In this document: positions 35,010 to 43,536 of the stretch, piece after piece | Position numbering within the stretch: the first letter of the stretch is position 1 | Layout of the letters: each line of letters starts with the position of its first letter | Origin: Microcystis wesenbergii NRERC-220 | GTDB lineage: Bacteria; Cyanobacteriota; Cyanobacteriia; Cyanobacteriales; Microcystaceae | NCBI RefSeq assembly: GCF_032027425.1 | Contig: NZ_JAVSJA010000001.1 | Coordinates: forward strand, 3,113,501-3,177,500 | Direction: 5' to 3' | Length of the DNA stretch: 64,000 bases | Translations under genes and position numbers: made by a program | Notes under the pieces: model-generated | What the model saw: the letters and a program-made list of their open reading frames with translations, nothing else | Told to the model about the DNA's origin: nothing | Databases searched by the model: none

Positions 35010-35094
35010 GTTTTGTCAGTGATCAGCTTTCAGTCATCGGGAGTCAGGTTTTTTCTCCCTGCTCCCTGCTCATAGTCTTAACGAGTAATTTAGA

Positions 35095-35310
35095 TAGGGT
35101 TTGCTGAATAAATTTGAAATGTAGGCAAAGTAAGGGTTTTGGGGCTTTTCTCGCGAAACAGGTGCAAGATTTTGAGAGAATCGTCGTTCAAAACCTTGCG
35201 TCTTCATCGGCCCGCGTCCTGTAGGGGCGAAGCATTCGGGCAATAACCTATCGGTGAAAACGTAGATTTTCTATCCGAATGCTTCGCCCGTACTTATTCA
35301 GCAAACCCTA
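35095..35310. mobile_element. MITE-like element, family D (copy 3), perfect ends
   Basis: TAGGGTTTGCTGAATAA and TTATTCAGCAAACCCTA are perfect 17-bp inverted ends. A second inverted pair inside (CGAAGCATTCGG and CCGAATGCTTCG, near 35228 and 35276) makes a nested hairpin. The core lacks the tandem repeats of other family-D copies. Confidence 0.88.
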
Positions 35311-35317
35311 GATAGTC

Positions 35318-35420
35318 ATACTAAATCCTGTTTAAAAGTTATAGGAGAGTGGGGAGAAGGGAGCGGGTTTTTTTAAGTGGGATTGGGAGTTAATCATGCT
35401 ATTAAAAACCGATTCAGTAT
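35318..35420. mobile_element. MITE-like element, family B (copy 3)
   Basis: Left end ATACTAAATCCTGTTTAAAA and right end TTAAAAACCGATTCAGTAT. A right half with the same interior (GAGAAGGGAGCGGGTTTTT, GGGAGTTAATCATGCTATTA) recurs alone at 39918-39986. It lies 7 bp after the family-D element. Confidence 0.75.
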
Positions 35421-35546: not shown

Positions 35547-35822
35547 TCATACGGGCTTTCTCTGGCTGCGACTGCCAAAACGGAAGACGGCTCTATGTCC
35601 AATCCGAATCACCCAAGGTTGAGCATCAGGGACACGCTCATAGAGATGATCGGTAGCAGTAATCGTATCGTCGGCAAGCTCAAACGCTCCAGTTTCGATG
35701 TCGATCGCCACAATTCTCCCCTGATTTCCCTCCTCCACTTGAGAACGTACCTGAGATTCATAAATCTCATTACCACGTCGAGGGAATTCTTCTTTGCTGT
35801 AGCGGGGTTGACGAACTGTCAT
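35547..35822 (-). CDS. Small conserved cyanobacterial protein, antitoxin-like position
   Basis: 91 residues starting MTVRQPRYSKEEFPRRGNEI, containing GRIVAIDIETGAFELADDTI and a C-terminal VIRIGHRAVFRFGSRS. I recall this as a widespread small cyanobacterial protein usually found just upstream of a retropepsin-like protease gene; only a remnant of that partner is visible 17 bp downstream. The function is unknown. Confidence 0.75.
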   Translation of the reverse strand: MTVRQPRYSKEEFPRRGNEIYESQVRSQVEEGNQGRIVAIDIETGAFELADDTITATDHLYERVPDAQPWVIRIGHRAVFRFGSRSQRKPV

Positions 35823-35927
35823 TGGCTTGACCCTGGGGCAACTTTTGCCCTCTATTTTAACCTAAACATCGGAAATCTTCGCTAACATTCCCCAACTAGG
35901 CCCACAAGAGCGGCATCGCACTTAAAC

Positions 35928-36027
35928 CCACAGTTTCAGTTAATGTGCATGGTGCGTTCCCCAAAATCGATCAGTGGAGCAGTAGAAGTCGCATTAGGGA
36001 ACGCACCCTACCAGATCGGCGATCGCG
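35928..36027 (+). repeat. 100-bp direct repeat R100, left copy
   Basis: It matches 41054-41153 over 100 bp with only a few differences and no length change. Inside, GGTGCGTTCCC and GGGAACGCACC form an 11-bp perfect inverted repeat. The two copies bracket the precursor-peptide/protease region and the toxin-antitoxin pair. Confidence 0.8.
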
Positions 36028-36256
36028 CTGTGGTGTACCAGTAGTGGGAAAGTGGGACAATCGCTTGAATGACCAGTTAACTGAGGCGCGGACGAAGCAG
36101 GATGAGGCGGTTAGGGAGCTTGGGCAGGTAGCAGGATTGAGCCAGGGTAGCTGAAAAGAGTTAGGAAAGCCTGAAAATTGGAGATTGGGAACTCCAAGAA
36201 GTTAATCTTGCCTGTCCTAATCTCCAATTATAAAAAATTCTGATTCTTTACTCCTT

Positions 36257-36478
36257 TTATAGACAATCAATGCAACCGCTCTGCCCTAGACCGGCAAAAC
36301 AAGACGCACATGCGAGTCCTCCACTGGCATAGCAGACTCCGGCACAGGCTGCTACTGAGGCAGCACAGCCAATTTTTTTCCAAGTCGAACACCCAGATGC
36401 TGTTACTGCATTCATCATGGCTATTTTGGTATCGCTGACATTTCGCAGAACTGGTTGGGCTTGAATGGGAAGCTTCAT
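36257..36478 (-). CDS. Cysteine-rich precursor peptide A with cyanobactin-like leader
   Basis: 73 residues. Residues 1-15 (MKLPIQAQPVLRNVS) match the leaders of three neighbouring small genes and resemble the LPQxxxPVxR element of cyanobactin precursors. The core has eight cysteines (30, 38, 45, 49, 57, 60, 69, 72) and many Gly/Ala, ending CIDCL. Cysteine spacing from Cys38 (x6, x3, x7, x2, x8, x2) nearly equals that of peptide C at 36803. It is the last gene of the minus-strand set led by a PatA/PatG-type protease. The mature product, disulphides or other modifications are unknown. Confidence 0.8.
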   Translation of the reverse strand: MKLPIQAQPVLRNVSDTKIAMMNAVTASGCSTWKKIGCAASVAACAGVCYASGGLACASCFAGLGQSGCIDCL

Positions 36479-36542
36479 GGTTCTTTCTCCTGTTTTCTAA
36501 GGTTAATTTGTGAAAATGGAAACTTAACAAACACGATCTTGT

Positions 36543-36722
36543 TCACAGTTTAGGAATGCACGCACCAGCACAACTACAGCCTCCAAATGGAACACATATA
36601 CAAGGACCCAAACAATACTCATCATCACCACAACACTTACCTGATGGTAGTATACCTTGATGTTGGGAAGCGTAAGTATTCAATTGACGTATAACTGGCT
36701 GGGCTTGAACGGGAAGCTTCAT
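36543..36722 (-). CDS. Cysteine-rich precursor peptide B (59 residues)
   Basis: This gene is very short. ATG at 36722 gives MKLPVQAQPVIRQLN, the shared leader, then a 44-residue core with eight cysteines (30, 31, 37, 41, 43, 49, 51, 55) ending CIPKL. GAGAA lies about 8 bp upstream. The cysteine pattern (CC-x5-C-x3-C-x-C-x5-C-x-C-x3-C) differs from peptides A and C, so the same leader carries different scaffolds. It lies between peptides C and A in one direction. Confidence 0.8.
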   Translation of the reverse strand: MKLPVQAQPVIRQLNTYASQHQGILPSGKCCGDDEYCLGPCICVPFGGCSCAGACIPKL

Positions 36723-36802
36723 GGTGATTTCTCCTGTTTATTGAGGTTTACTTTTAAAAATTTATGCCAGGAAAGCAAGCTGACTCTCCTAGTATACTTT
36801 GA

Positions 36803-37021
36803 TTAGAAGATATCGCTGAAGCAGTCTTTACAAGCTTCATAAGAAGGACCCAGACAGGCTAGACAGGCACCGACTCCACCTTCGTAACAAGCAGATGCAC
36901 ACTCTAAGACTTTTGCGCCACAGCGCAACCAACTACATTCAGAAGGGTTAATTGTCTTCCCTGCGAGTTTTGAGGAACTAACTCCTCTCATGACGGGTTG
37001 GGCTTGAATCGGAAGTTTCAT
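36803..37021 (-). CDS. Cysteine-rich precursor peptide C
   Basis: 72 residues with leader MKLPIQAQPVMRGVS and a core with eight cysteines (29, 34, 41, 45, 53, 56, 64, 67). The last seven follow x6-x3-x7-x2-x7-x2, nearly the same framework as peptide A although the other residues differ, which points to selection on the cysteine positions. It starts 21 bp after the Nif11-like gene, preceded by AGGAGAAA. Confidence 0.8.
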   Translation of the reverse strand: MKLPIQAQPVMRGVSSSKLAGKTINPSECSWLRCGAKVLECASACYEGGVGACLACLGPSYEACKDCFSDIF

Positions 37022-37042
37022 GGTGATTTCTCCTTTACAGAT

Positions 37043-37360
37043 TTACAAAAAATCATTTACAGCTCTTTCACATATTAAACGTGCCAAGTACGGCGGTTTA
37101 GAGCAAATGCTGGAGGTTCTATCAATCCTCGTTAGACTAAACGATGAAAACACCTCCTCAAACGTTATCGAAATACCTCCTCTCTCTTCTGTAAAATATT
37201 CCTCTACCTCGTTGGCTGTGAAACTGAAGCCCCTCTCAGAACCAAGCTGCACAGCGAGATTTATTAAACTTTCTCGATCTGTCGTTGCTTCTAGGCTATT
37301 TTTAATCCATGTATCATCCTGGGCAATCTGGCTAAACTGTCTCACACTTTCTATAGACAT
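37043..37360 (-). CDS. Nif11-type leader precursor peptide
   Basis: 105 residues. Residues 1-65 (MSIESVRQFSQIAQDDTWIK and GFSFTANEVEEYF) fit the Nif11-like leader family, which directs modification of ribosomal peptides. The remaining about 40 residues contain two cysteines (86 and 97) and no double-glycine junction is obvious. It is encoded within the cysteine-rich precursor set. A family-C miniature element ends 1 bp upstream of its ATG and supplies AAGAGG as ribosome-binding site. Confidence 0.75.
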   Translation of the reverse strand: MSIESVRQFSQIAQDDTWIKNSLEATTDRESLINLAVQLGSERGFSFTANEVEEYFTEERGGISITFEEVFSSFSLTRIDRTSSICSKPPYLARLICERAVNDFL

Positions 37361-37361
37361 A

Positions 37362-37498
37362 AGACCTCTTGCATAAATCCGAAAACAAACGATAGAAACA
37401 ATAATGGGAGGGACTTTCAGTTAATTATTTATTAGTAGTTGATAATCTTCAAAAATGTTGCTGTACAAGGATCGACTTAAGACTTTTGCAAGAGGTCT
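37362..37498. mobile_element. MITE-like element, family C (copy 4), between precursor genes
   Basis: Inverted ends AGACCTCTTGCA and TGCAAGAGGTCT are perfect over 12 bp. The interior is unrelated to copies 1-3. It separates precursor D from the Nif11-like gene and may interrupt the operon. Confidence 0.85.
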
Positions 37499-37536
37499 AT
37501 AGTAATTTCCTCCTGCTGCGTAGCTCAAGTTATGCT

Positions 37537-37713
37537 TCATAGCGGACAAACGCAGCCTGGAAGAATGGAATTACAAACTGCTCCCCCACCCGCTTCACAG
37601 CAGAGATCGCATCGCAACTTCCAGTTTGATGGATTAATCCCTGCCATCACGCCTAAGATTTTTGTCGGGCTGACTTTTCTGATTGTTGGTGGTGCTTGTA
37701 TTGGCAATAGCAT
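37537..37713 (-). CDS. Cysteine-rich precursor peptide D
   Basis: 58 residues from ATG 37713 (a start at 37731 overlapping the protease end is possible). Leader MLLPIQAPPTIRKVS is a diverged version of the shared leader. The core has six cysteines (35, 38, 39, 47, 54, 56) and ends CVCPL. It begins 29 bp after the protease stop codon, the closest precursor to the protease gene. Confidence 0.75.
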   Translation of the reverse strand: MLLPIQAPPTIRKVSPTKILGVMAGINPSNWKLRCDLCCEAGGGAVCNSILPGCVCPL

Positions 37714-37741
37714 TATGGATTCTCCTCCCAATGGGGTTTTA

Positions 37742-39712
37742 TTAGCTGGCTATAGACCATGAGCGGACCGTACCAATAGTGACTGGAATCACGTCGCTGA
37801 CATCGATGGTGAATCGATAGACTTTTCCAGATCTTCGGTTATCCACCAGGTTAAAAAACTGTAGCTTTATGTCGTAACAATCTGAATCGGGACGACAGAT
37901 AGGACTCTTCTCTACCGTAATGCTGTCAAGCGCTAGATCGCCTATTCCTGCATCAAGCATCACCACTGTCGCTTGGAAGGCATTGGTCGCTGAGAAGTTT
38001 AGCGCCCGTTCCTGTGGGGTAATGCCCAGGTTACGGTAGTCGTAATAGATACGCTCCAGATACTCTTGAAGCTTACGTGTCAGATTACCTGTCACCTCCT
38101 CCTGCGTTGGTGGTGTCCTCTCCGATTCTGTTGCAGCTTGCGTTGCAGCTTGCATTGCAAGTGGCACTAACGAGTTGATTAAGGCTGGAACAGTCCAACT
38201 GAACATACCTCGCACTTCCGGGATAATAACGGGAACGGTCTGCCCCGAAAGCAACCTGATACTACCTCCGATATAACCTGGAATTGAGATTCGCTCAACG
38301 CGATTAGACTCCTCGACGGGATTTGTTTGGTTTCTGTAAAATTCGCGAAGCCGAGCGTAAGTTTCAGAGGCAAAGGGACCTGTCGGCATGATCGCGTAAA
38401 TTGGCGTGGCATCCAGATTGAGTGTCCAAATCAGCGACTGTGCCTCCCAGGGATTCTGAGCGAGATAGTCCAATAGATTCGTGGTAGGCGGGATAGCTTG
38501 CGTAAAGGAATCTCGACGAGCTTCGGTAGCGTAGTCGAAACCCAGTTCTCCGAGGGCGTAGACTAGCTGCATTGGTCCGCCTCCGCCACAGCTACACCCT
38601 TCTGAGGGAGTAACCGAAGTTGAACTGCTGCTAGGGGTAACGGCAGGTACGTTGGCTGAAGTTGTCTGGGTGGGCGAAGAAATGGCGGCTGAGGCAGTCA
38701 CCATCGGTTTTTCTAGGACTGGCAAGGCAGTTGAAGCTTCCACCTGACCCGTGCTGTTCGCCTCTGCTGGTTGGGGCGTTTCTTGGGAATTTAGTTCTGA
38801 CATAGTGGTTCTCTCTCCTTTAAGGATTATAGTTTGTACGGCGGCAAGATCGAGACTCCCCGCCAAAAAGCGGCGGCAATCTTCGGCAATTTGCTGGTTG
38901 CACGGCAAAGCACTCTGGAGGATGGCTGTGCGGACGGCTTGAGGATCTGGCGGTTCTCCCTGTTTGAGTTGGAGGCTCAACAGCAGGGCAACAATACCAG
39001 AGACGATGGGAGTGGCAAAGCTAGTGCCACTTTTCAGGGCTGTGCCGCCGCCGGGAACTGCCCCCAAAATGTTTTCGCCTAGAGCAAGGATACCTTGATT
39101 TTGATAGGCATCGCCCCAATTACTAAAATCGAGAGGCAATCCCTGAGCGTCCATTGCCCCTACAGCCAGAACTGTCGGTAAGGCTGCTGGCAGGTGAAGG
39201 CACTGGCAGCCATCGTTGCCTGCTGCTGCCACGATTAGCACGTTGTTCTCAGCGCATAACTGAACGGCTCGAACCAATAAGGAGTCAGCCTGACCAGATT
39301 GGGTCATCTGACCGCCACTAATATTAATGATGTTGGCTCCCTGCTCGACGGCTTGGGTAATGGCTCGTGCCAGGTCAAGCTGGGAGCAAGGGGCAAGCGA
39401 ACCTTTTACTCCCTCGGCGAATACCGGAACAATTAAGCCCCGGCATTGAGGGGCAATTCCCCGTACAGGGCTATCGTGTTGTCCAAAGATGACGCTGGCA
39501 ACGTGAGTCCCATGTTGCAAAGCATAGCCTGTACCAGAACGCCCCGACACCAAAGTTTGGATTTCTGTAAGATTGGATCCCTTGAAACAAGGGTGGGACG
39601 GATCGACGGGGCCGTCGAGAACAGCGATGCAAATATTGGGATCCCCCAAAGTTTCATGCCAAAGAGCATTCAAGATATCTGAGATATTTAACTTGTGTTC
39701 AAGTAACTGCAT
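37742..39712 (-). CDS. PatA/PatG-type cyanobactin maturation protease
   Basis: 656 residues. The N-terminal subtilisin (S8) domain (about 20-275) has the triad Asp33 (VLDGPVD), His67 (HGTHVAS) and Ser231 (SGTSFATP) with Asn165 as oxyanion residue. A low-complexity linker rich in Ser/Thr/Pro follows (about 305-370), then EGCSCGGGG, then a C-terminal domain (about 385-650; QLVYALGELGFDYATEARRD, NPWEAQSLIWTLNLDA) like that of PatA/PatG proteins. It is predicted to cut leaders from, or otherwise process, the precursors encoded just downstream. No signal peptide. Confidence 0.9.
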   Translation of the reverse strand: MQLLEHKLNISDILNALWHETLGDPNICIAVLDGPVDPSHPCFKGSNLTEIQTLVSGRSGTGYALQHGTHVASVIFGQHDSPVRGIAPQCRGLIVPVFAEGVKGSLAPCSQLDLARAITQAVEQGANIINISGGQMTQSGQADSLLVRAVQLCAENNVLIVAAAGNDGCQCLHLPAALPTVLAVGAMDAQGLPLDFSNWGDAYQNQGILALGENILGAVPGGGTALKSGTSFATPIVSGIVALLLSLQLKQGEPPDPQAVRTAILQSALPCNQQIAEDCRRFLAGSLDLAAVQTIILKGERTTMSELNSQETPQPAEANSTGQVEASTALPVLEKPMVTASAAISSPTQTTSANVPAVTPSSSSTSVTPSEGCSCGGGGPMQLVYALGELGFDYATEARRDSFTQAIPPTTNLLDYLAQNPWEAQSLIWTLNLDATPIYAIMPTGPFASETYARLREFYRNQTNPVEESNRVERISIPGYIGGSIRLLSGQTVPVIIPEVRGMFSWTVPALINSLVPLAMQAATQAATESERTPPTQEEVTGNLTRKLQEYLERIYYDYRNLGITPQERALNFSATNAFQATVVMLDAGIGDLALDSITVEKSPICRPDSDCYDIKLQFFNLVDNRRSGKVYRFTIDVSDVIPVTIGTVRSWSIAS

Positions 39713-39736
39713 CTAGTCAGAAAGCTCCTTTATCAG

Positions 39737-39921
39737 GCCCAAAAGCCTGTTAGCCAGATTAGCATATTGCCAAAAACCTTGTTTAACTAAATTTCTGACA
39801 ATTAGGCTCATTCTAGCGATGATTCTTCGATCTGACCGCACCCATTGACAAAAATTTACAATTATTCGACCTTTTGCGATCGCTATCGGGGGATAGTTGT
39901 TTTTTGTTACAGCAGTGGGGG
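39737..39921 (+). repeat. 185-bp direct repeat R185, left copy
   Basis: It is nearly identical to 42396-42580, same length, both starting GCCCAAAAGC and ending CAGCAGTGGGG. It contains a HIP1 octamer. A family-B right half (39918-39986) is attached to this copy only. No gene lies in 39713-40046. Confidence 0.9.
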
Positions 39922-40046
39922 AGAAGGGAGCGGGTTTTTCAAGTTGGATTGGGAGTTAATCATGCTATTAAAAACCGATTTAGTATAAAGACCCCGTTAT
40001 GCCGTGTCCCTACAGATAGACTTCAACGGCTCTAGCATTCGGCGCG

Positions 40047-42183: not shown

Positions 42184-42296
42184 AACTCAATTACAGGAAT
42201 TTTGACACATTACCTAATAGTAATAGATTTCCCCAATAATGAACAAGACTTACTTCCATTACCCATAACCCAAGCCGCATAACTAGAGATTATACA

Positions 42297-42397
42297 GAAA
42301 CTTTCCGTATAACACTCTTGAAAGTAACAATATGTGGAAACTTTCTGTATATCACTCCATTTAGGTACGATTGCCAGAACTTTTCCCTATATCACGC
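42297..42397. repeat. Three 21-bp direct repeats with exact 40-bp period
   Basis: GAAACTTTCCGTATAACACTC (42297), GAAACTTTCTGTATATCACTC (42337) and the diverged GAACTTTTCCCTATATCACGC (42377) are spaced exactly 40 bp. They lie upstream of the LRAT-like gene (minus strand) and directly before R185. Possible operators, iterons or the relic of a larger array. Confidence 0.7.
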
Positions 42398-42580
42398 CCA
42401 AAAGCTTATTAGCCAGATTAGCATATTGCCAAAAACCTTGTTTAACTAAATTCCTGACAATTAGTCCTATTCTAGCGATGATTCTTCGATCTGACCGCAC
42501 CCCTTGACAACAATTTACAATTATTCGACCTTTTGCGATCGCTATCGGGGTATAGTTGTTTTTTGTTACAGCAGTGGGGA
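42396..42580 (+). repeat. 185-bp direct repeat R185, right copy
   Basis: Counterpart of 39737-39921. It ends 16 bp from the stop of the DUF29 gene at 42597. Confidence 0.9.
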
Positions 42581-42596
42581 GCAGTCTAACTGATGG

Positions 42597-43061
42597 CTAT
42601 ATTTCCAGATTATCGCCCGCAGGAAACCAATCTTCATCGAGAATTTGTTCAAGGGAACCAATGGGAATAACGGGGAAAGTATCGAGGGGTAATTGAGAGC
42701 GGTCACTGGCATTTTTTCGGGCTGAAAGATAACATTCATCAAAAATTTCCAAAAGATAAGGTTTCAGACTAGGACTATCTTTAAGTTCATCTAATATATC
42801 GAGACGAAAAGTTCTAATCTCTCCCTTCCAGTGACCTTCGTTTCTCTCTCTTTCTGCCGCCCAATATTTGAGCTTAAGTAAATGTTCTAATAATCGGGTT
42901 AACAGACTTTTAATTGTGCGCTTTTCACTCCTTCCCATACTTGCTAATTCCTCCAGTAAATTCTCTAAATCTACCCGCTCAAACTGTCTGGCTTGCAGTT
43001 GATTAATAGTAGTTCTAATCCAGAGATAAAAGTCTTGTTCGTACATGGTTTTATTATCCAT
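42597..43061 (-). CDS. DUF29 family protein, copy 1
   Basis: 154 residues. Its first about 50 residues (MDNKTMYEQDFYLWIRTTIN...EELASMGRSEKR) are nearly identical to the upstream copy at 43078, while the rest diverges. DUF29 proteins are small helical proteins very abundant in cyanobacteria with unknown function, often in multiple tandem copies. The stop is 17 bp from the R185 repeat. Confidence 0.88.
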   Translation of the reverse strand: MDNKTMYEQDFYLWIRTTINQLQARQFERVDLENLLEELASMGRSEKRTIKSLLTRLLEHLLKLKYWAAERERNEGHWKGEIRTFRLDILDELKDSPSLKPYLLEIFDECYLSARKNASDRSQLPLDTFPVIPIGSLEQILDEDWFPAGDNLEI

Positions 43062-43077
43062 AATTTACCTCTATATA

Positions 43078-43536
43078 TTACTCGTGGTTATTAGTGGGAA
43101 ACCAATCTTGATCGAGAATTTGTTCAAGGGAACCAATGGGAATAGCGGGGAAAGTATCGAGGGGTAATTGAGTTCTAACTTGAGCCTCTTTTCTAGAAAA
43201 TTGATAGCATTCCTCAAAGATTTCCAGAATATAGGGTTTCAAACTAGGGCTATCTTTAATTTCTTCGATTATTTGTCGGCGAAAGTTGATAATTTCCCCT
43301 TTCCAGTGACCCTCATTTCTAGATTTTTCTCCTGTCCAGTAAGTTAGTTTCAGCAAATGTACCAGCAATTGAATCAAAAGATTTTCGATTTTGCGTTTTT
43401 CACTCCTTCCCATACTTGCTAACTCCTCCAGTAAATTCTCTAAATCTACCCGCTCAAACTGTCTCGCTTGCAGTTGATTAATAGTAGTTCTAATCCAGAG
43501 ATAAAAGTCTTGTTCGTACAGAGTTTTATTGTCCAT
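43078..43536 (-). CDS. DUF29 family protein, copy 2
   Basis: 152 residues, tandem paralogue of the gene at 42597 and 16 bp upstream of it. The N-terminal part MDNKTLYEQDFYLWIRTTIN is almost the same, with central and C-terminal conservation (SLKPYILEIFEECY, PLDTFPAIPIGSLEQILD). Probably one transcript with its neighbour. Confidence 0.88.
   Translation of the reverse strand: MDNKTLYEQDFYLWIRTTINQLQARQFERVDLENLLEELASMGRSEKRKIENLLIQLLVHLLKLTYWTGEKSRNEGHWKGEIINFRRQIIEEIKDSPSLKPYILEIFEECYQFSRKEAQVRTQLPLDTFPAIPIGSLEQILDQDWFPTNNHE

What the first reader, a model, noticed from the sequence alone, without database searches (positions are those of the whole stretch)
36257..39712. A protease-led set of cysteine-rich ribosomal peptide precursors with a cyanobactin-like leader
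One strand carries a PatA/PatG-type subtilisin gene, then four tiny genes sharing MKLPIQAQPVxR-type leaders and a Nif11-like gene. The leader resembles the LPQxxxPVxR element of cyanobactin precursors, yet the cores have 6-8 cysteines and none of the usual short cyclic-core pattern. No YcaO cyclase, prenyltransferase or oxidase lies in the window. This could be a lineage in which the Pat protease acts on disulphide-rich or otherwise modified peptides. One precursor has only 59 codons and is easy to overlook.
Basis: partly seen in the sequence, partly recalled or inferred. Interest (0 to 1): 0.85.

Follow-up and report, generated by a model that had tools for sequence, protein, structure and literature searches.

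The report
PatA protease with cysteine-rich precursor peptides
A small cyanobacterial gene set pairs one leader-cutting protease of the cyanobactin family with several tiny genes for cysteine-rich peptides; it appears to be a separate branch of that family that probably makes linear, disulphide-held mini-proteins instead of small rings.

Summary
On the minus strand, window 36257-39712 carries a PatA-type subtilase (656 aa), four precursors (58-73 aa, 6-8 Cys) with a shared LPxQxxPVxR leader, and a Nif11-like gene. The genome has a second, diverged copy; relatives were found in one cyanobacterial order. The protease lacks the PatG macrocyclase insert and falls, with 29 other rows, in a third clade apart from cyanobactin PatA and PatG. 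Leaders end in a PatA-type cut site, G[ILVM]x[AP]S, in 44 of 81 precursors (shuffles at most 5). No end signal for macrocyclisation was found; Cys number is even in 51 of 53 Cys-bearing peptides. Of 22 genomes with a linked set, 7 show no YcaO and 14 no second PatA/PatG match. In its genus this copy is a cassette seen in 1 of 12 genomes. Best reading: a PatA-only branch beside cyanobactins that releases linear, probably disulphide-bonded peptides. Chemistry and function are untested.

The parts
37742..39712 (-). PatA-type subtilase (S8 + PatG_D + PatG_C), 656 aa, intact D33/H67/S231
37537..37713 (-). precursor 4, 58 aa, 6 Cys; LPIQAPPTIR, predicted cut after GINPS; grouped with peptides of L009, L018, L023, L028, L112
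37043..37360 (-). Nif11-like gene, 105 aa; also in the second copy (58 aa), otherwise rarely found
36803..37021 (-). precursor 3, 72 aa, 8 Cys; LPIQAQPVMR, predicted cut after TINPS
36543..36722 (-). precursor 2, 59 aa, 8 Cys; LPVQAQPVIR, predicted cut after GILPS
36257..36478 (-). precursor 1, 73 aa, 8 Cys; LPIQAQPVLR, predicted cut after AVTAS; grouped with precursor 3
36176..36229 (-). inverted repeat just after precursor 1, possible transcription end
   Evidence: 24-nt arms, 79% complementary; not called by the terminator scan
36033..39726 (.). variable cassette: no listed match to this segment in the other 11 genomes of the genus, whose flanking DNA matches up to its edges
37362..37498 (.). 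stretch bounded by an inverted repeat (18-nt arms, 89%) between Nif11 and precursor 4; looks like a small insert
   Evidence: that it is an insert is inference

Best explanation
A protease-plus-precursor unit that is a third branch of the PatA/PatG family. The leader (LPxQxxPVxR, then about 9-14 residues, then G[IVLM]x[AP]S) marks the precursor; the PatA-type protease cuts after the Ser and frees the core (29-45 residues in the window) as a linear peptide. With no macrocyclase, no C-terminal signal and no obligate heterocyclase, the core is not made into a small ring; its paired cysteines form disulphides, giving a set of stable mini-proteins, probably secreted and competitive (bacteriocin-like). 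Shown by computation: the unit, its conservation, the clade, the motif, the lack of YcaO and PatG partners in many genomes. Inferred: the cut itself, disulphides, export. Speculative: biological role.
For: Second copy in the genome. Protease closest to solved chains named N-terminal cyanobactin protease (4h6w, 401 bits) and subtilisin-like protein (4h6v, 3zxx, 358-357; PatA by recall), ahead of the thiazoline oxidase/subtilisin-like chains (PatG; 4h6x 207). Asp-to-His spacing 32-34 in 30 of 30, PatA 34-36 in 20 of 20, PatG 70-176 in 19 of 19; triad DHS in 30 of 30. Third clade of 30 rows, support 99 (SH-aLRT, quick method); the 31st row collected by similarity, L029, sits with cyanobactin PatA. 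Cut-site motif in 44 of 81 usable precursors, shuffles mean 0.71, maximum 5 in 1000, none further along the peptide; PatA's published site is G(L/V)E(A/P)S (PMC10885120, passages). Leader profile in 291 genomes of the order: 27 positive, 22 with the protease beside it. Of those 22, 7 show no YcaO at E 1e-10 and 14 show one TIGR03895 match only, the linked one. Whole YcaO in 0 of 34 third-clade loci. Cys even in 51 of 53 Cys-bearing peptides. Cassette edges close to the gene set.
Against: No expression or mass data. In this genome the sites of precursors 1 and 3 (AVTAS, TINPS) lack the Gly; 37 of 81 miss the strict motif, and some sets end in PL or TS instead of PS. Remnants of YcaO lie near 3 of 34 loci (L030, L009, L020) and a whole YcaO lies about 6 kb past the second copy, so a past or present heterocyclase link cannot be excluded. 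No export gene was seen among the 17 window proteins scanned; other loci were not scanned by model for one. One sub-branch carries Cys-free cores, a methyltransferase and a PatB-like protein, so disulphides are not the family's unifying trait. Cys parity counts are not independent (related peptides).
Confidence: 0.72

Rival explanations
1. Decayed cyanobactin cluster: the set is a remnant that lost heterocyclase and macrocyclase and makes nothing.
For: YcaO fragments near L009, L030 and L020; own genome has a reduced cyanobactin-like locus.
Against: Triad intact in 30 of 30 and one well supported clade drawn from many families; open precursors with conserved leader, cut site and paired Cys, and core groups shared between genera. 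Four further loci had broken or partial proteases (L021, L033, L036, L116), so some copies do decay.
Confidence: 0.1
2. The cores are modified in trans by a distant enzyme (YcaO or other), so the product is a modified peptide, not a disulphide peptide.
For: This genome has an orphan YcaO of 765-777 aa; 15 of 22 genomes with a linked set have some YcaO.
Against: 7 of 22 have none at E 1e-10; a YcaO is also in genus members without the leader (G252, G095, G112); no MNIO match in the genome (control rang). The LanM search gave nothing but its control did not ring, so it is uninformative. By reading, the precursors lack the LAELSEEAL element of heterocyclised cyanobactins.
Confidence: 0.15
3. The small genes are ordinary cysteine-rich proteins (for example metal binding) and the shared N-terminus is a docking tag that is not removed.
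For: PatB-like proteins in cyanobactin clusters and in one sub-branch also begin with the LPxQxxPVxR element though they are not thought to be precursors.
Against: Precursors have a cut-site motif in a narrow range and 25 core clusters behind one leader, the pattern of released peptide families.
Confidence: 0.08

Closest known systems
Cyanobactins (patellamide, anacyclamide/piricyclamide types)
   Same: PatA-type protease with the same domains; leader element with the same P-x4-P-x2-R spacing; PatA-type cut site. 14 of 42 precursor-set rows touch the anacyclamide/piricyclamide model at E up to 0.1, best 6.6e-5.
   Different: No PatG macrocyclase beside them, no AYDG/SYDG/AGDDAE end, no LAELSEEAL element, no obligate YcaO; in the window's branch long Cys-rich cores; protease in its own clade.
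Linear cyanobactins (aeruginosamide, viridisamide)
   Same: Linear product expected.
   Different: Those are called highly modified linear peptides in a title (Leikoski 2013, seen only as a citation and a mention); here the window cores are 29-45 residues with paired Cys.
Cyanobacterial bacteriocin clusters, group VI of Wang 2011 (PMC3140520)
   Same: S8 peptidase beside small genes.
   Different: That group has HlyD, SurA and a long-type C39 transporter, and DUF37 precursors of 82-84 aa (two of five text parts and passages read); none was seen among the 17 window proteins scanned.
Disulphide mini-proteins (cystine-knot peptides)
   Same: One relative's peptide (L030:11974-12183) weakly matches Toxin_7 (E 0.0045) and, in the PDB, Xt3a and other small toxin-like and inhibitor peptides (E 0.004-0.1), along with chance-looking hits; that these are cystine knots is recalled.
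   Different: Below Pfam's cut-offs; the window's own precursors matched no such family.

Membership tests
Cyanobactin | PatA/PatG-family protease | tested here: met
   TIGR03895 728 bits, cut-off 421
Cyanobactin | Precursor leader with LPxQxxPVxR-type element | tested here: met
   hhalign probability 94, E 1e-7; but the window precursors score 12-14 bits to TIGR03678 and TIGR04446 where cut-offs are 39.6 and 35, while 18 of 18 comparison cyanobactin precursors match cyanobactin models
Cyanobactin | N-terminal PatA recognition site before the core | tested here: met
   44 of 81 strict matches; in the window 2 of 4 strict
Cyanobactin | C-terminal recognition signal and PatG macrocyclase | tested here: not met
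   no end signal in small same-strand genes of the 34 third-clade loci; one PatG-like protein 4 kb past the set in L020 only; no second family match in 14 of 22 genomes
Cyanobactin | Heterocyclase (YcaO) or prenyltransferase | tested here: inconclusive
   not obligate in known cyanobactins; whole YcaO 0 of 34 loci; prenyltransferase not searched by model
Nif11-leader RiPP | Nif11 leader with double-Gly cut and C39 exporter | tested here: not met
   one Nif11-like gene, 23.6 bits against 32.3 in TIGR03798; found in 3 of 35 loci; the four precursors do not match it
Disulphide-rich peptide | Disulphide bonds in the mature peptide | not testable with these tools

The most novel reading that the evidence does not exclude
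A separate class of ribosomal peptides: a single PatA-type protease matures a hypervariable repertoire of linear disulphide mini-proteins, some perhaps cystine-knot-like, behind one cyanobactin-type leader, carried as a stand-alone movable cassette. It would imply that PatA plus leader is a general peptide-release module, to which cyanobactins added heterocyclase and macrocyclase (or from which this branch shed them).
Probability: 0.5. Interest if true: 0.75.

Novelty: new variant of a known kind. Interest (0 to 1): 0.6.

Why it matters
It separates the two halves of cyanobactin biosynthesis in nature: leader recognition and PatA cutting without heterocyclisation or macrocyclisation. That gives a clean system for asking what the conserved LPxQxxPVxR element and the C-terminal domain of unknown function do; the same element also heads PatB-like proteins. 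It also adds a source of cysteine-rich mini-proteins whose genes are easily missed, since most are about 50-100 codons long and the window's four fall far below the cut-offs of current precursor models.

Tried and rejected
Rejected: PatG-type protease. Rejected: Nif11 as a core part. Rejected as a member of the third clade: L029, which sits with cyanobactin PatA and has YcaO, a PatG-like frame and two cyanobactin precursors. Corrected: small proteins first noted as PatC-like are most likely PatB family: three of 42 scanned rows match TIGR04220, best E 1e-13; I had put in three such rows, the answer does not name which matched. Idea that the C-terminal domain docks the leader element: not adopted, because the PatG domain did not bind the precursor by NMR and the protease domains are reported active alone (PMC4259220, passages); no test of the PatA domain was seen there. 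Structure prediction off, so fold searches were not run. Knottin likeness is a weak hint from one relative; a second core gave only antibody chains. LanM search uninformative. Leader strings in the paper library: 369 papers held some term, 20 were listed, and in these only LPIQ occurs, in unrelated texts; LPIQAQPV, LPIQSQPV, MKLPIQ and LPxQxxPV show 0 (figures and supplements are not searched).

Rows dropped before counts: 7 duplicate loci of 42; L021, L033, L036, L116 left out of the tree (broken, partial or odd proteases); leader matches under 20 bits, PatB-like rows, opposite-strand rows and L029 left out of the precursor set, among them the one opposite-strand match, in L110. One precursor without the exact element left out of the motif count, 81 of 82. 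The 82 include one peptide with masked letters (L114), doubtful ones (L115, L032:11813, L098/L106 first genes) and one with an uncertain start (L018:10174). The clusters are rough: two peptides in cluster 1 look like another type. The script counts 21 of 22 Cys-bearing clusters with an even median, but one of these has median zero; 20 of 21 is the right count (recounted by hand). The position label printed is offset by three; distances given here are corrected.

Limits of the controls: the 21 comparison cyanobactin loci were picked by me around high PatA or PatG scores, several because a YcaO lay near, so 15 of 21 with YcaO is a check that the search works, not a rate. Three of the 19 PatG rows show Glu in the Asp column, alignment or real. 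Some third-clade loci have short flanks (L022, L115, L106, L108).
Full report
What is there. The window lies in a 4.68 Mb genome of 2 contigs, rated 100% complete (G000:C1:3113501-3177500). On its minus strand, in order of transcription, are the protease (37742-39712), precursor 4 (37537-37713, 28 bp on), a Nif11-like gene (37043-37360), and precursors 3, 2 and 1 (36803-37021, 36543-36722, 36257-36478). The protease passes the PatA/PatG model by a wide margin and has S8, PatG_D and PatG_C domains. The precursors match no family above its cut-off; the best are 11-14 bits to cyanobactin and bacteriocin precursor models with cut-offs of 35-39.6, and precursor 4 matches nothing. Ribosome sites precede all four precursors.

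It is not chance. A degenerate pattern for the leader finds three places in the genome, all in this set, and none with the reversed pattern. The genome carries a second copy (L009): a protease 64% identical by alignment, a Nif11-like gene of 58 aa, and four precursors with MNLPxQ leaders and 6 Cys each. One precursor group (cluster 1) holds window precursor 4 and peptides of L009, L018, L023, L028 and L112; most share a PPT or PPI variant of the leader.

Which protease. Sequence search against solved structures ranks the N-terminal cyanobactin protease 4h6w (401 bits) and the chains 4h6v and 3zxx (358, 357; PatA by recall) above the PatG chains (4h6x 207, 4aks 205). The spacing between the catalytic Asp and His is 32-34 in all 30 third-clade rows, 34-36 in 20 PatA rows and 70-176 in 19 PatG rows; a macrocyclisation insert is described for PatG in PMC4663559 (passages), and that it lies in this gap is recalled. 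In a tree of 69 proteases the PatG rows, the cyanobactin PatA rows (plus L029) and the remaining 30 rows, among them the window's, form three sides; the third has support 99 (quick method, SH-aLRT, midpoint root). Inside it are a branch of 18 rows, which with the doubtful exception of L115 hold Cys-bearing sets (4-10 Cys), and 12 other rows that mostly hold Cys-free or Cys-poor cores. Neighbour clusters show a methyltransferase in 10 loci (LCM family by the one representative scanned) and a PatB-like protein in 11 loci, all of that second kind, one of them (L116) not in the tree.

The leader and the cut site. Of the 34, 32 have precursors, 82 in all after the filters told in Tried and rejected. 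In the listing before those filters, one match alone, in L110, lies on the other strand; the rest are downstream of the protease on its strand within about 4.4 kb. Invariant leader positions are P4, Q6, P9, R12. Eighteen cyanobactin precursors from the comparison loci keep P7, P12, R15, the same spacing, and the two profiles align with probability 94 and E 1e-7 across both the element and the cut site. The strict motif G[ILVM]x[AP]S begins about 10-15 residues after the Arg in 44 of 81; shuffling the same residues gives 0.71 on average and 5 at most in 1000 trials; it does not occur further along (label offset corrected). PatA cuts after G(L/V)E(A/P)S according to PMC10885120 (passages). In the sub-branch with Cys-free cores the site is often exactly GVEAS.

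The cores. A pairwise search puts them in 25 clusters. Of 53 peptides with Cys after the leader element, 51 have an even number; by cluster, 20 of 21 with a Cys-bearing median are even (recount). Related peptides are not independent, so the cluster count is the fairer one. Small frames of the loci with an AYDG/SYDG/AGDDAE-type stretch occur only in L029 and in one opposite-strand frame of L028. One core in L030 weakly resembles small toxin-like and inhibitor peptides.

What travels with it. Whole YcaO genes: 0 of 34 third-clade loci, with fragments in L030, L009 and L020; the same search finds one in 15 of 21 comparison loci, which were partly chosen for having it. In a sample of 291 genomes of the order, 27 have the leader at E 0.01. 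In 22 of these the protease is beside it on the same contig (in G211 only its C-terminal part, cut by the contig end); the other five (G059, G290, G104, G165, G233) show none beside it. Of the 22, seven (G017, G034, G075, G076, G102, G141, G268) have no YcaO at E 1e-10, and fourteen have a single TIGR03895 match at E 1e-40, the linked one (only the top four candidates per genome were scored, and many genomes are drafts). Some rows of the leader profile come from genomes in this sample, so the search is not fully independent. In a sample of 386 genomes of the phylum, nine match at E 0.001, all in the same order. Of the two not seen before, G515 and G533, both have the protease beside the leader, but G533 repeats the named locus L024.

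Mobility. All 12 genomes of the genus match the surroundings, mostly at 90-98%, but no listed match covers the stretch from about 36033 to 39726 except here (the list is cut at weak matches). In the four relatives whose region was fetched (L137-L140) the flanks are present and the stretch is not; in the one of the same species (L137) other genes fill the place. The edges sit about 15 bp before the protease start and about 225 bp after the last precursor, so the set moves as one piece and its promoter probably lies in the flanking repeat. The genus member G211 has a set like the second copy (L141). The genus is probably Microcystis: this is recalled from the size of one relative's chromosome, not tested by name.

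Mechanism, step by step. Precursor made (inferred from ribosome sites and conservation); leader read and cut after [AP]S by the protease (inferred from motif, clade and linkage; not shown); linear core, as no macrocyclase or end signal is present (inferred, fairly strong); disulphides form, probably after export (inferred from parity; exporter unknown); role in competition (guess).

Against and open. Two of the window's four sites lack the Gly; many relatives deviate. The genome has an orphan YcaO near the second copy, but a YcaO of like score is also in genus members lacking the leader. L020 has a PatG-like protein 4 kb past its set. The role of the C-terminal domain is open: the PatG one did not bind its precursor (PMC4259220, passages).

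Is it in print? Searches of the held open-access library listed no title or abstract describing it; papers were read only in the passages or parts named. Subscription papers are mostly missing, so this is not proof.

Verdict. A real branch beside cyanobactins, found in many genera of one order and apparently undescribed; it works like the front half of a cyanobactin pathway but fails the macrocyclase and end-signal criteria, so it is not filed as a cyanobactin.

Noticed in passing
L121, L124, L127, L129, L130, L131, L135, L136; L027, L031, L032, L098, L100, L101, L105, L106, L108, L110, L116; L026, L035: PatB-like small proteins (three of 42 scanned rows match TIGR04220) mostly start with the same LPxQxxPVxR element as the precursors, so the element is not only a leader.
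   Followed up: partly
L009:9925-11016 and L023, L026, L032, L035, L098, L100, L101, L106, L112: Patatin-like genes near the set in 10 of 35 loci, in L026 and L035 upstream on the other strand (Pfam PF01734 for L009 only); possible immunity or effector, untested.
   Followed up: no
L010:4494-11342: Own genome holds a reduced cyanobactin-like locus: anacyclamide-type precursor, a short protease frame, and a 956 aa protein joining a subtilase and PatG C-terminal part with a kinase-like middle (kinase from reading the sequence).
   Followed up: no
L016:6046-8343 (G000:C1:3519159-3520172): Orphan YcaO of 765-777 aa with a YcaO fragment beside it (one stop inside), near the second copy of the set.
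   Followed up: partly
L009:818-2197: A radical-SAM-like protein (CxxxCxxC read by eye) upstream of the second copy, on the other strand.
   Followed up: no
window about 35089-35319, 35558-36032, 39727-39999, 42277-42643: Stretches matched at many places in genomes of the genus; two of them border the cassette, so this may be a repeat-rich variable site.
   Followed up: partly
window 42597-43536: Two DUF29 genes in a row; three similar frames in a row in relatives L137-L140.
   Followed up: no
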